A stretch of 64,000 bases of DNA from Pseudosulfitobacter pseudonitzschiae (lineage in GTDB: Bacteria; Pseudomonadota; Alphaproteobacteria; Rhodobacterales; Rhodobacteraceae). Positions 38,673 through 61,347 of the stretch are shown here, piece after piece. The position numbers were made by a program, and so were the translations under genes. The notes under the pieces were generated by a model. The model was not told where the DNA came from. It did no database searches and was given only the letters and a program-made list of their open reading frames with translations. The stretch's first letter is position 1. Every line of letters starts with the position of its first letter. The DNA lies in contig NZ_CP022415.1 of NCBI RefSeq assembly GCF_002222635.1, positions 682,001-746,000 of the forward strand, in the 5' to 3' direction.

Positions 38673-38767
38673 CGTCCGGATATGGAAACTTTCTGTTTTC
38701 ATACGTGCACTGGTGCGCGACGGGCCATATTGGGCTATGGTATCGGCACAACGACCGGATAAGCCGC

Positions 38768-39340
38768 ATGAGAGACCACGCTTCGGACAGGCGCGCAGGC
38801 GCATCAGACCGTATCACCATCAGCGGCTTTGACGCGGCCGAGGACGTTCTGCTGGTCACGGTCGAGCCGGGCGTCGATGCGGCAATCCGGGGTCAAAAGA
38901 TCACCCGTGCGGGCCTGATCGTCCGCTTTTCCACCGGTACTTCTGTGCTGCTCGAAGGGGTGCGCAAGCAGATCAGCGAAGACTCGGTAACCTTTGTGGA
39001 AGAAGGCACGCCCCAGATCGAAGAACCCGCACCATCGGGCGAGGTTCTCTATTACGGCAGCTACACCTCGGGCGACGGGGATGCACACAGCTATATGGGA
39101 ATGCGCAGCGCCGACCATATCACCGGCAACGTCGTCCTCAGCGGCTTCACCCAAGGCACCGATAGCATCGCAATCGAATCCGACGCACCCCAGCATCTGG
39201 TCGTCACCGCCCAGACCCCCACGGATCAGGGTCTGTTGATCACCCTGTCCAACGGTGTGACGATCACGCTGCAAGGGGTCGCATCCCCGATCGAGGCCCG
39301 CGACGTGGTCTTTGTCCCCGCAGGAACGCATCTGCCCTAG
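38768..39340 (+). CDS. protein with two copies of an RTX-associated-like domain
   Basis: From ATG 38768 the protein has 190 residues and consists of two tandem copies of one module. Copy 1 (about residues 13-75) runs ITISGFDAAEDVLLVTV...GLIVRFSTGTSVLLEGV...SVTFV and copy 2 (about 115-180) runs VVLSGFTQGTDSIAIE...GLLITLSNGVTITLQGV...DVVFV. The pattern resembles the beta segment that follows calcium-binding RTX repeats in secreted proteins, but no GGxGxD repeats are present. It may be a stand-alone or remnant module. Its TAG stop is part of a 14-bp palindrome into which the IS110 element inserted. Function unknown. Confidence 0.6.
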   Translation: MRDHASDRRAGASDRITISGFDAAEDVLLVTVEPGVDAAIRGQKITRAGLIVRFSTGTSVLLEGVRKQISEDSVTFVEEGTPQIEEPAPSGEVLYYGSYTSGDGDAHSYMGMRSADHITGNVVLSGFTQGTDSIAIESDAPQHLVVTAQTPTDQGLLITLSNGVTITLQGVASPIEARDVVFVPAGTHLP

Positions 39341-39387
39341 AGCGTTTCGGATGAAACCCGAAACGCTTGTCTTATGATTTTCTCTGT

Positions 39388-39572
39388 CTCCATGCGAAGA
39401 TGGAGCCTCTGCCGGCCAGGCCATTTATGGCGGGCAGAGGCGGTGTGTGGATCGTGAAACGCTTGGTCTTGCAGGACCGTTCTAAAGTATGATCACACGC
39501 CGTCTTCGACTGGGGCCTGAACGAATACGCAGTGGCTGCAAAGCTCTGCATGACAAGCATAGGACAGCGAAG
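39388..39572 (+). ncRNA. candidate bridge RNA of the IS110 element
   Basis: The non-coding left end can fold into three parts. First, a stem CCTCTGCC/GGCAGAGG (39406-39413 with 39433-39440). Second, an internal loop enclosed by GGTGTGTGGATC and GATCACACGCC and capped by GGTC/GACC: its left side GAAACGCT (39456-39463) equals the left target flank (39360-39367), and its right side TCTAAAG (39481-39487) is nearly complementary to CTCTAGG (40521-40527). Third, a loop with ACGAATAC (39521-39528), close to the right IS end ACGGATAC, and GACAAG (39552-39557), complementary to the left IS end CTTGTC (39366-39371). These match the target and donor guides of bridge RNAs. The exact RNA ends are unknown. 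Confidence 0.7.
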
Positions 39573-40508
39573 ATGAACCACGATACCATCGGAATAGATA
39601 TTTCCAAAGACAAACTCGACGTGCATCGACTGCTCGACGGGAGGTTTGCACAATTCCCAAACACCAAACCCGGCTTCAAGGCTTTGCAAAAGTGGGTTGG
39701 CGCGATTTTGCCTGCCTGCGTGGTTTACGAACCCACCGGGGCCTATCATGGTGCGTTTGAGGCGGCACTTGCGGATCACTTACCGCTGGTGAAAGTGAAC
39801 CCGAAGCACGCGCGCCGCTTCGCCGAAAGCCGTGGTGCGGGTGCAAAGACAGACCGTGCGGATGCCCGTTCCTTGGCACAGATGGGCGCGGCACATGGTC
39901 TGGCCCCGGATACGCCTGCGGCCAAAGATCGCCCTGTTCTCAGGGAGTTGCAATCCGCCCGTACCGCATTGGTGAAGGACAAGGTGCGACTGCGAAACCA
40001 ATTGGACAAGCAAGGCCATGCCCTGACGCGCAAGCTCTCAAGCCGACGATTGAGGCTGGTGGAGGCGCAGATTGCAGAGCTGGATCAGGCCATCCGCGCC
40101 CAGATCGAAACCTGCCCTGTCCGCAAGCGAGCCCTCACGCTCATGGAAAGTATCAAGGGCATCGGTGCAGTGGCCGCGACCACGATCCTCATTGAACTTC
40201 CCGAAATAGGTTCATTGCGCAAAAAGGCCGTTGCGGCGATTGCAGGTGTCGCGCCCATAACGCGACAATCAGGTCGCTGGCGCGGCCAGGCCTTCATCCA
40301 AGGAGGCCGCAAACCTTTGCGCGATGCACTCTACATGCCCGCGCTCGTCGCGATCCGTTTCAATCCCGATCTCAAAGCGCAGTACGACAAAATGAAAGCT
40401 GCTGGAAAACCCCCTAAGGTCGCCATCATCGCCGTCATGCGAAAGCTCCTGATCCTCGCAAACACTCTGGTCAGAGAGGATCGGGAGTGGTCTGAAATCA
40501 AAGCTTGA
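39573..40508 (+). CDS. IS110-family recombinase (DEDD transposase)
   Basis: The 311-residue recombinase starts at ATG 39573 behind AGGACAGCGAAG. The RuvC-like DEDD residues are visible at D9 (IGIDISKDKLDV), E53 (VYEPTGAYH), D94 and D97 (KTDRADARSLA). The C-terminal Tnp domain has the helix-hairpin-helix SIKGIGAVAATTIL and a serine in TRQSGRWRG that fits the catalytic serine of the family. Short length and upstream non-coding region place it in the IS110 rather than the IS1111 group. The frame is intact, so the element may be active. Confidence 0.92.
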   Translation: MNHDTIGIDISKDKLDVHRLLDGRFAQFPNTKPGFKALQKWVGAILPACVVYEPTGAYHGAFEAALADHLPLVKVNPKHARRFAESRGAGAKTDRADARSLAQMGAAHGLAPDTPAAKDRPVLRELQSARTALVKDKVRLRNQLDKQGHALTRKLSSRRLRLVEAQIAELDQAIRAQIETCPVRKRALTLMESIKGIGAVAATTILIELPEIGSLRKKAVAAIAGVAPITRQSGRWRGQAFIQGGRKPLRDALYMPALVAIRFNPDLKAQYDKMKAAGKPPKVAIIAVMRKLLILANTLVREDREWSEIKA

Positions 40509-40545
40509 TCAAGACGGATACTCTAGGCGGCGCTTTCATGCGGCT

Positions 40546-41229
40546 TCAGTCACAGATGCCCTTCAACTCGACCCCGTCCCAAGGCATCCGTACATCGCTC
40601 TGGCGCCGCTCCGGCAGGGGCGCCACCGGCATCACCTGTGCAATCAACGTATGCAGCCGCTTGGTGCGCGGCGCTGTGGGGGCCAGCGCACGGCAGCACA
40701 CGAATTCCTCGACAATCGACCCCTGCTGCTCAAAGCCATAATCCGAAAACTGCGGATCACGGTCGAGATCGAACAAATAGGGATCGGCCCCGCGCTCGTG
40801 TTCCGACGCGGCTTTCAGTGGCGAATACCCCGTGGTCCTGCGGTTCTGCCACTGCCAGACATGGGTCAACTCGTGGCTCAGCAGCATCGCCGCGATCAGT
40901 CCGATCCGGTCGGGGTATTCGGGCAGATAGTCGTCCAGATACCAGTCCTTGTCGAACAGCACATGGTTGAACAGCGCCACGGCGGCAGGCTTGGCAGTGA
41001 CAATCTCGGTTTCGGGCGGCGGCAGTATGCGCTCGCGGCAGGTGGTGCGGGGCCGCGCCTTGCGCTTGAACGTCACCGCACGCGTTGGCGCACCGTCCAC
41101 CAGCCGCACCTTGGTCGTGTCCAGCCCGCTGCCGTGGATGGTGTTGGAAAACGCCACCTCCGCAGAGGTCATGGGCCGCCCGCAGGCGGTCAACAGCAGC
41201 AACAGGGCAATCAAGGGGCGTGTCCACAT
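40546..41229 (-). CDS. lipoprotein with HExxH zinc-peptidase motif
   Basis: The 227-residue protein has a lipoprotein signal peptide (lipobox LTAC near residues 13-16). The middle contains LLSHELTHVWQWQ at about residues 116-128, a classic HExxH zinc-binding motif, followed 20-odd residues later by SEHERGADPYLF, whose glutamate could be the third ligand. Four or more cysteines occur (TTCRER, VCCRA, GICD). It could be a periplasmic metallopeptidase related to proteins with DUF4157-like HExxH domains, but no family is certain. The gene ends 24 bases after the IS110 right end. Confidence 0.7.
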   Translation of the reverse strand: MWTRPLIALLLLLTACGRPMTSAEVAFSNTIHGSGLDTTKVRLVDGAPTRAVTFKRKARPRTTCRERILPPPETEIVTAKPAAVALFNHVLFDKDWYLDDYLPEYPDRIGLIAAMLLSHELTHVWQWQNRRTTGYSPLKAASEHERGADPYLFDLDRDPQFSDYGFEQQGSIVEEFVCCRALAPTAPRTKRLHTLIAQVMPVAPLPERRQSDVRMPWDGVELKGICD

Positions 41230-54250: not shown

Positions 54251-55276
54251 TTAGGCTACCGCGATCGGATCTCGATAATCTTCGTGTTTCGTCATCATCG
54301 CCCAAATGATGCGCGCCGTTTTGTTGGCGAGCGCGATGGCTACCAGCATGCGAGGCTTACGCTCTAACATTTGCTCAAGCCATGAGCCTTTGGGTGGACC
54401 ATTTTTAATCGCCCATCTGATCCGTGTCATGGCCCCAATTATCAGCAGTCGCCGAATGTCGCGCTGCCCCATCTTTGATGTTCGCCCTAACACTTGGCGC
54501 CCACCTGTCGATTTCTGAACCGGGACCAGACCAAGCCATGCCGCAAAATCCCGGCCGCGTTTGAAGCCTTCCAACGGCGGAGAGAATGCCTTGATCGCCA
54601 TTGCACTCACAGGACCAATACCGGGCGCGGTCTGTAGTCGAATCGTCTCTGGGTCGGACTTCGATTCCTCTTTTAGACGCCGCTCTATCGTAACGACTTT
54701 GTCGGTGAGCACATTAAGCTGATCCAGATGGACACGGCTGAGTTCAATAACGATTGAAGGCAGGTCACAATCCGGGCTTTCTATCTGTTCTGCTAGTTTC
54801 TTCACAAAGTTCCGACCGGGAGGGGCGATGATGCCATACTCCATCAAATGGCCGCGTAGCGCATTGATGATGGAGTTACGTTGCCGAACAAACAAATCCC
54901 GTGTCTTGAAGATCATCGAACGGGATTGCTGTTCAGCTGATTTAACAGGCACAAACCGCATGGTCGGTCGGACTGCCGCTTCGGCAATAGCCTCTGCATC
55001 ATTGGCGTCATTCTTCTGACGCTTGACGAATGGCTTCACGTAGATCGGCGGGATCAGACGAACATCGTGGCCCAGCTTCAGGATCTCGCGACCCCAATAA
55101 TGCGAAGAGGCACAAGCCTCCATCGCTACCACGCAAGGCTGCTGCTCACTTAAAAACTTCAAAAATTGCCCCCGCGACAGCTTCTTGCGGAACACAGGTT
55201 CGCCGACAGCCGTCGCGCCGTGCGCTTGGAAAACGGACTTTGCCAAGTCGACGCCGATCATTGTAACTTCATTCAT
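54251..55276 (-). CDS. IS110-family recombinase of element A
   Basis: The 341-residue recombinase starts at ATG 55276. DEDD residues are D10 (MIGVDLAKSVF), E53 (AMEACASSHYW), D90 and D93 (QKNDANDAEA). The C-terminal domain has TAPGIGPVSAMAIKAF and the serine-containing VPVQKSTGGRQVLGRTSK, then RRLLIIGAMTRIRWA. The frame is intact. Sequence similarity to the recombinase of element B is plain throughout, so the two elements are related but distinct. Confidence 0.93.
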   Translation of the reverse strand: MNEVTMIGVDLAKSVFQAHGATAVGEPVFRKKLSRGQFLKFLSEQQPCVVAMEACASSHYWGREILKLGHDVRLIPPIYVKPFVKRQKNDANDAEAIAEAAVRPTMRFVPVKSAEQQSRSMIFKTRDLFVRQRNSIINALRGHLMEYGIIAPPGRNFVKKLAEQIESPDCDLPSIVIELSRVHLDQLNVLTDKVVTIERRLKEESKSDPETIRLQTAPGIGPVSAMAIKAFSPPLEGFKRGRDFAAWLGLVPVQKSTGGRQVLGRTSKMGQRDIRRLLIIGAMTRIRWAIKNGPPKGSWLEQMLERKPRMLVAIALANKTARIIWAMMTKHEDYRDPIAVA

Positions 55277-60318: not shown

Positions 60319-61347
60319 TCATGTAGCGACCGCCTGCGTCGGATCCCGATAATTTTCCTTCTTCGTTTGCATGGCCCATAGGGCCCGGGCCATCTTGTTG
60401 GCCAGCGCAATTGCGACCAGCATCTTCGGCTTGCGCGCGAGCATACGTTCCAGCCAAGATCCTTTGGGTATGGATTTGCGACCTAACTGGCTCAAGCGTG
60501 ACATCGCTCCGATAATCAGAAGCCTTCTGATGTCAGATTGGCCCGCCTTTGACATTCGCCCCAGACGGGGTTTGCCGCCTGATGAATGCTGTCGTGGCAC
60601 GAGGCCCAGCCAGGCCGCAAAGTCGCGGCCCCGGGTGAATGTCTCCAGTGGTGGAGCAAATGCCTCGATGGCAAGGGCGCTTAAAGGGCCAACGCCCGGC
60701 ATCGTCTGAAGTCGTTTGGCCGTGTCCGTCTCAGTGGACAAGGCTTTGATCCGTTTCAACTTGGCGTCGATCCGGACAGTGGTCTCTTCAATCAGTTCGA
60801 AAAGGTCTCGACACTCCTGGCGGACCAGGTCTGGAAGATCGCAATTCGGGTCCTCAAGGATCTCATTCCCGCGGCTCAAATTCCCTATGCCCTGCGGGAT
60901 TGTATGCCCGAACTCATAGAGGATTGATCGCAGACCATTTACCAACTCAGTCCGTTGGTTCACCAAACGCTCCCGGTTCCGGAACAGGATCGCACGGGCC
61001 TGTTGGCTCTCAGACTTGGCAGGAACAAACCTCATCTCCGGACGCTGCGCCGCGACGACGATAGCTTCTGCGTCCGCGGCATCGTTTTTCTGGCGCTTCA
61101 CAAATGGTTTCACATATTGCGGCGCGATCAGTTTCACCTCGTGACCAAGTCGGGCCAGCTCGCGCGCCCAGTAGCTGGCACTGCCACACGCCTCCATGAC
61201 GATGACCGCGGGTGGTTGCGCCGAAAGAACCTCCCGAAACTGTGAGCGGGACAACTTCTTACGAAACTTCAACTGCCCAGTCATGCTTGCCCCGTGAAGC
61301 TGGAAAACGTTCTTTGCCAGGTCCACTCCGATCATTGTATCTTTCAT
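60319..61347 (-). CDS. IS110-family recombinase of element B
   Basis: The 342-residue recombinase starts at ATG 61347. DEDD residues are D9 (MIGVDLAKNVF), E52 (VMEACGSASYW), D89 and D92 (QKNDAADAEA). The Tnp domain has TMPGVGPLSALAIEAF and VPRQHSSGGKPRLGRMSK with candidate catalytic serine. The frame is intact. It is clearly similar to the recombinase of element A along its whole length. Confidence 0.93.
   Translation of the reverse strand: MKDTMIGVDLAKNVFQLHGASMTGQLKFRKKLSRSQFREVLSAQPPAVIVMEACGSASYWARELARLGHEVKLIAPQYVKPFVKRQKNDAADAEAIVVAAQRPEMRFVPAKSESQQARAILFRNRERLVNQRTELVNGLRSILYEFGHTIPQGIGNLSRGNEILEDPNCDLPDLVRQECRDLFELIEETTVRIDAKLKRIKALSTETDTAKRLQTMPGVGPLSALAIEAFAPPLETFTRGRDFAAWLGLVPRQHSSGGKPRLGRMSKAGQSDIRRLLIIGAMSRLSQLGRKSIPKGSWLERMLARKPKMLVAIALANKMARALWAMQTKKENYRDPTQAVAT

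What the first reader, a model, noticed from the sequence alone, without database searches (positions are those of the whole stretch)
39388..39572. A readable bridge RNA: all four guide segments can be assigned in the IS110 element
In the non-coding left end, an internal loop carries GAAACGCT (39456-39463), identical to the left target flank, and TCTAAAG (39481-39487), complementary to the right target CTCTAGG at 5 of 7 positions plus one wobble. A second loop carries ACGAATAC (39521-39528), 7 of 8 like the right IS end, and GACAAG (39552-39557), the exact complement of the left IS end CTTGTC. Order (5' stem, target loop, donor loop, then recombinase) is as reported for the IS621 bridge RNA. 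This gives a naturally programmed, apparently intact system in a marine alphaproteobacterium.
Basis: partly seen in the sequence, partly recalled or inferred. Interest (0 to 1): 0.88.

Follow-up and report, generated by a model that had tools for sequence, protein, structure and literature searches.

The report
IS110 element with legible bridge RNA
A small jumping gene in a marine bacterium carries a guide RNA whose letters name both the place where it landed and its own two ends, exactly as in the recently discovered bridge-RNA system; it is a clear but ordinary natural member of that known system.

Summary
All four segments lie at the stated coordinates, between the left end and the recombinase of a 1,155-bp IS110-group element (39366-40520). 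The reading as a bridge RNA is supported. Relatives show compensatory pairing in the stems, and both target-loop guides track each copy's own flanks: left guide in 79 pairs, z 15.3; right guide in 38 pairs, z 13.8. With similar guides removed, none of 20,000 shuffles reaches the observed value. One identical element at eight sites keeps the guide-specified core. The recombinase is intact, with the DEDD and Ser residues. The joined ends would form a promoter (TTGATC-17-TATGAT) conserved in the family. Two same-genus genomes have the flanking genes side by side without the element.

Two corrections apply. The right target guide of this copy fits its site poorly (3 of 5 bases beyond the CT core), and its left donor guide has one mismatch at a nearly invariant position.

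Mechanism, loop order, circle promoter, natural reprogramming and REP targets were all published for IS110/IS1111 elements by 2024. This is a new member of a known kind. Activity was not tested.

The parts
39366..40520 (+). IS110-group insertion sequence, 1,155 bp with one CT core (second CT copy at 40521-40522)
   Evidence: conserved left end CTTGTCTTATG and right end ACGGATACT in relatives; absent at the same gene pair in G1031 and G1028
39336..39367 (.). left part of the target hairpin: CCTAGAGCGTTTCGG, loop, CCGAAACG, core CT
   Evidence: sequence; rejoined site folds at -30.3 kcal/mol
40521..40527 (.). right core CT and right target CTAGG, the rest of the hairpin arm
   Evidence: sequence; fold of rejoined site
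39373..39378 (+). TATGAT, -10 box that pairs with the right-end -35 box only in the circle
   Evidence: 17-nt spacing to TTGATC in the reconstructed junction; TTGA at this spacing in 33 of 38 elements
40505..40510 (+). TTGATC, -35 box in the right end; overlaps the recombinase stop codon
39385..39566 (+). predicted bridge RNA, about 180 nt (start inferred from the -10 box, end inferred)
   Evidence: covariance model match 39440-39561, 105.8 bits; fold; covariation of stems. The transcript itself is inferred
39388..39440 (+). 5' stem-loops of the bridge RNA (CTCCAT/ATGGAG and CCTCTGCC/GGCAGAGG)
   Evidence: positions and fold
39442..39501 (+). target-binding loop and its stem (39442-39453 with 39491-39501; apical GGTC/GACC)
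   Evidence: consensus structure with double changes
39456..39463 (+). left target guide GAAACGCT
   Evidence: 8 of 8 with the left flank; guide-flank tracking in 79 pairs
39481..39487 (+). right target guide TCTAAAG (perhaps extending from 39479)
   Evidence: 5 of 7 with the right flank including core, 3 of 5 beyond it; tracking in 38 pairs
39521..39528 (+). left donor guide ACGAATAC
   Evidence: 7 of 8 with the right IS end; relatives carry ACGGATAC in both guide and end
39552..39557 (+). right donor guide GACAAG
   Evidence: exact complement of the left end CTTGTC; nearly invariant pair in relatives, double change in L045
39573..40508 (+). recombinase, 311 aa, DEDD (D9, E53, D94, D97) and S233
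   Evidence: PF01548 and PF02371; alignment to ISCro4, IS621 also matched; residues

Best explanation
This is an IS110-group insertion sequence with a bridge RNA in its left end. The element leaves as a circle whose joined ends create a sigma-70 promoter; this transcribes the bridge RNA and then the recombinase. The target loop pairs with the left target (bottom strand) and the right target (top strand) around a CT core, and the donor loop pairs with the joined ends. The recombinase (DEDD plus Ser) then exchanges strands at CT. This copy landed in the 3' arm of an intergenic hairpin, GAAACG-CT-CTAGG, which its guides read perfectly on the left and roughly on the right. Shown here: anatomy, conserved fold, guide-to-flank tracking over many copies, intact recombinase, absence of the element in relatives. 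Inferred by homology: transcription, circle formation, pairing in the complex and catalysis.
For: Guide-to-flank tracking z 15.3 and 13.8, robust to removal of similar guides; eight sites of one element share the guided core; covarying stems; fold z -5.6; recombinase families and solved relatives; conserved junction promoter; flanking genes adjacent without the element in two congeneric genomes; double changes of donor guide and end in L007 and L045.
Against: No transcript, circle or activity data. This copy's right target guide pairs at only 3 of 5 positions beyond the core, and its left donor guide has a mismatch at a nearly invariant position. A few relatives fit poorly, for example L110, L120 and L141 on the right; some of these may be misplaced ends. 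An exact empty copy of the hairpin was not found.
Confidence: 0.95

Rival explanations
1. The element is a bridge-RNA IS, but this copy is decaying: drift in the right target guide and left donor guide has made it weak or immobile.
For: Right guide 3 of 5 beyond the core; left donor guide ACGAATAC where relatives have ACGGATAC; only one full copy in the genome.
Against: Open reading frame, catalytic residues, both ends, promoter boxes and stems are intact; the left guide is perfect.
Confidence: 0.3
2. The recombinase chooses the site by protein-DNA contacts, and the left-end RNA is only a structured leader of the recombinase mRNA; matches to the flanks are chance or remnants of the site.
For: The RNA is directly upstream of the gene; such leaders exist in general.
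Against: Guides and flanks vary together over dozens of unrelated sites and the loop segments lie well inside the element, so they are not copied from the flanks.
Confidence: 0.02
3. The segment is a known small RNA, sX15, read on the opposite strand.
For: One sub-threshold Rfam match on the minus strand, 27.5 bits, E 0.039.
Against: Gathering score is 55; no sX15 match in 15 loci that carry relatives of this RNA.
Confidence: 0.01

Closest known systems
IS621 bridge RNA and recombinase (Durrant et al. 2024, PMC11208160; Hiraizumi et al. 2024, PMC11208158; PDB 8wt6-8wt9)
   Same: Bridge RNA in a long left end upstream of the recombinase; target loop then donor loop; left guide like the top strand, right guide complementary to it; CT core; promoter formed by the joined ends; targets in palindromic REP units; DEDD-Ser recombinase (PDB match E 6e-26).
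   Different: Distant in sequence; different guides, stems and ends (CTTGTCTTATG and ACGGATA); about five right-target bases beyond the core are read.
ISCro4 (PDB 9t56)
   Same: Closest solved recombinase by sequence (E 5e-27).
   Different: Aligned only by protein sequence here; its RNA was not compared.
seekRNA of IS1111 and IS110 elements (Siddiquee et al. 2024, PMC11187229)
   Same: Non-coding RNA with a segment for each target strand; circle with promoter; natural reprogramming between relatives.
   Different: IS1111 members have the RNA downstream of the gene, sub-terminal inverted repeats and the reverse order of guides.

Membership tests
IS110 group (bridge-RNA insertion sequences) | DEDD recombinase with Tnp20 domain and conserved Ser | tested here: met
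   PF01548 and PF02371 above cut-off; IS621 and ISCro4 matches; D9, E53, D94, D97, S233
IS110 group (bridge-RNA insertion sequences) | Long non-coding left end holding the RNA, short right end | tested here: met
   207 bp before the gene, 12 bp after the stop codon
IS110 group (bridge-RNA insertion sequences) | Conserved RNA fold with target loop then donor loop | tested here: met
IS110 group (bridge-RNA insertion sequences) | Target guides covary with insertion sites | tested here: met
IS110 group (bridge-RNA insertion sequences) | Donor guides match the element's own ends | tested here: met
   6 of 6 and 7 of 8 in this copy; nearly invariant in relatives
IS110 group (bridge-RNA insertion sequences) | Promoter formed by the circle junction | tested here: met
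   sequence only: TTGATC-17-TATGAT, 33 of 38 elements
IS110 group (bridge-RNA insertion sequences) | RNA is transcribed, binds the recombinase and directs recombination | not testable with these tools
   needs RNA-seq and recombination assays
IS1111 group | RNA downstream of the recombinase | tested here: not met
   RNA is upstream; right end is 12 bp
Rfam sX15 | Match above the gathering score | tested here: not met
   27.5 bits against 55; not recurrent in relatives

The most novel reading that the evidence does not exclude
Bridge RNAs of this family that have lost their recombinase (L002 in the same genome; two derivatives with the same internal deletion, L088 and L089, in a related genome) may still be used in trans, so that a recombinase elsewhere in the cell moves them or is redirected by their guides.
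Probability: 0.1. Interest if true: 0.5.

Novelty: new member of a known kind. Interest (0 to 1): 0.27.

Why it matters
It is an independent check, in an alphaproteobacterial lineage, that the published bridge-RNA code can be read straight from genome sequence: left and right guides predict the flanks of dozens of unrelated insertions. The family offers a compact natural set of recombinases of about 310 aa with legible guides and sites, and shows that about five bases to the right of the core are read. It does not change the accepted mechanism.

Tried and rejected
Rfam: the only match was sX15 on the opposite strand; rejected as chance because it does not recur in relatives. No sX15-bearing genome was reached for a direct comparison. 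The idea that the target is an abundant repeat in this genome was not borne out: CCGAAACGCTCTAG occurs once, as the other arm of the same hairpin, and GAAACGCTYTA occurs 11 times against 2 for the reversed control, mostly without an obvious hairpin on reading the contexts. An exact empty hairpin was sought; the relatives with adjacent flanking genes have a different spacer there. L088 and L089 as a self-moving mini-element were left as a lead, because L089 has lost its left part and the two right flanks resemble each other. Literature searches found the general mechanism papers but none on this family.

Full report
WHAT IS THERE. The window carries one complete element of this IS110 family. 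Its left end, CTTGTCTTATG, starts at 39366 and its right end, ACGGATA, stops at 40520; CT stands at both junctions (39366-39367 and 40521-40522). The recombinase runs from 39573 to 40508, 311 aa. The longer frame from 39489 listed by the ORF tool is probably not the protein start, since relatives align from 39573 and an AGGA stretch at 39561-39564 sits before it. It matches PF01548 and PF02371 and the solved recombinases ISCro4 (9t56) and IS621 (8wt6), with D9, E53, D94, D97 and S233 at the places expected for the catalytic residues. The genome holds no second full copy of this element, but 34 places match the DEDD IS110 domain model.

THE FOUR SEGMENTS. GAAACGCT at 39456-39463 equals the left flank with core. 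TCTAAAG at 39481-39487 pairs with the right flank CTCTAGG at 5 of 7 plus a wobble, but two of these are the CT core, so only 3 of the 5 bases beyond the core pair. ACGAATAC at 39521-39528 is 7 of 8 like the right end. GACAAG at 39552-39557 is the exact complement of the left end. The strand folds far better than shuffles, z -5.6. The target-loop stem GGTGTGTGGATC/GATCACACGCC lies at 39442-39453 with 39491-39501 and its apical stem is GGTC/GACC.

COMPARATIVE TEST OF THE FOLD. Relatives were gathered by protein and then by a covariance model of the RNA. The model rings in 40 of 395 genomes drawn from the family and in 14 of 385 drawn from the class, this genome included in both. On the model alignment 94.2% of cells are standard pairs, 134 cells changed on both sides against 47.6 in shuffles, and slid controls pair at 28 to 52%. 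That alignment was fitted to the model and so leans towards it; the first, unfitted alignment also shows 16 of 29 pairs with a double change.

COMPARATIVE TEST OF THE GUIDES. IS ends were located by the donor motifs only (TTGTCTTA and ACGGATACT), so the flanks were taken without looking at the target guides. Left guide against own left flank: 79 pairs, mean 4.59 of 7 matches against 2.56 when flanks are shuffled, z 15.3, none of 5,000 shuffles as high. Right guide against own right flank: 38 pairs, 4.66 of 7 against 2.21, z 13.8, none of 5,000. Agreement on the right is 0.89, 0.89, 0.89, 0.76 and 0.58 for the first five bases beyond CT, then falls. Two registers of the left guide were allowed, for own and shuffled pairs alike. 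After keeping only guides that differ from each other at three or more positions: left n=36, z 10.4; right n=12, z 8.5; 0 of 20,000 shuffles; on the right the own target is never beaten by another (12 of 12), on the left in 18 of 36. Examples of full agreement are L111 and L007 on the right, and L119, L025 and L084 on the left. One identical element in genome G240 has eight distinct left flanks, all ending GG-CT and seven GGG-CT, with guide CTTTGGG-CT.

DONOR SIDE. The donor guides are almost invariant, as are the ends: GACAAG with CTTGTC in 35 of 52 tabulated loci. Two lineages changed both partners: L007 (AGGGATAC in both guide and right end) and L045 (GAGAAG with TTTCTC). These are few events, but in the expected direction.

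PROMOTER. Joining right end to left end gives TTGATC-17 nt-TATGAT; the -35 box contains the recombinase stop codon. TTGA lies at the same spacing in 33 of 38 reconstructed junctions. In the integrated state only a weaker match exists (ATGAAA-16-TATGAT). A promoter made by the circle is known for these elements (PMC11187229; PMC11208160).

THE SITE. The rejoined flanks form a long hairpin, CCTAGAGCGTTTCGG with CCGAAACGCTCTAGG, folding at -30.3 kcal/mol. It lies between two frames that point at each other (38705-39340 + and 40546-41229 -), neither with a Pfam match. In congeneric genomes G1031 and G1028 the flanking genes align across the junction with no element; the short spacer there differs, so an exact empty copy of the hairpin was not seen. 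Insertion into intergenic palindromes parallels the REP targets of IS621 (PMC11208160).

The right guide of this copy asks for CT-TTAGAAC while the site is CT-CTAGGCG. The nearest full-length relative, L007, has the same right guide and a perfect right flank, and L026 and L061 keep the guide. So the window copy appears to carry an inherited right guide in a second-best site (inference). The left donor guide departs from the otherwise near-invariant ACGGATAC. Whether this copy still moves is open.

NOVELTY. Bridge RNA, loop order, guide logic, circle promoter, REP targets and natural reprogramming are published (PMC11208160; PMC11208158; PMC11187229). No paper on this alphaproteobacterial family was found in the held library, which lacks most subscription journals. 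This is a well-supported new member of a known kind.

Noticed in passing
L002:1464-1673 (G000:C1, about 2827396-2827605): A second bridge RNA of this family in the same genome, with left end but no recombinase; another IS110-family gene lies about 1 kb downstream. Its left guide (TTCAGGG-CT) differs from the window's and agrees with its own left flank (TGGG-CT) next to the core.
   Followed up: partly
L088:535-867 and L089 (G355:C13, about 63.7 kb and 77.5 kb): Two short derivatives with the same internal deletion: bridge RNA loops, a C-terminal recombinase remnant and a right end, with different right flanks (CTCGATTC and CTTGATGC; guide asks for CTTGATTAC). L089 lacks the left end. Possibly a non-autonomous element.
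   Followed up: partly
window 54836-55258 (-) and 60913-61332 (-): Two further IS110-family recombinase domains in the window, among 34 in the genome: an unusually heavy load of this family.
   Followed up: no
L070:1500-1520 (G000:C1:1463721): An unoccupied site, CCC-GAAACG-CT-TTAG-GG, that fits the window element's guides better than the site it occupies.
   Followed up: no
window 39551-39427 (-): Sub-threshold, full-length match to Rfam sX15 on the opposite strand; it does not recur in relatives and is probably chance.
   Followed up: yes
L021-L025, L028, L029, L034, L036 (Rhizobiales): In the Rhizobiales members the left guide sits one base nearer the apical stem than in the window's group, a register shift within one family.
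   Followed up: partly
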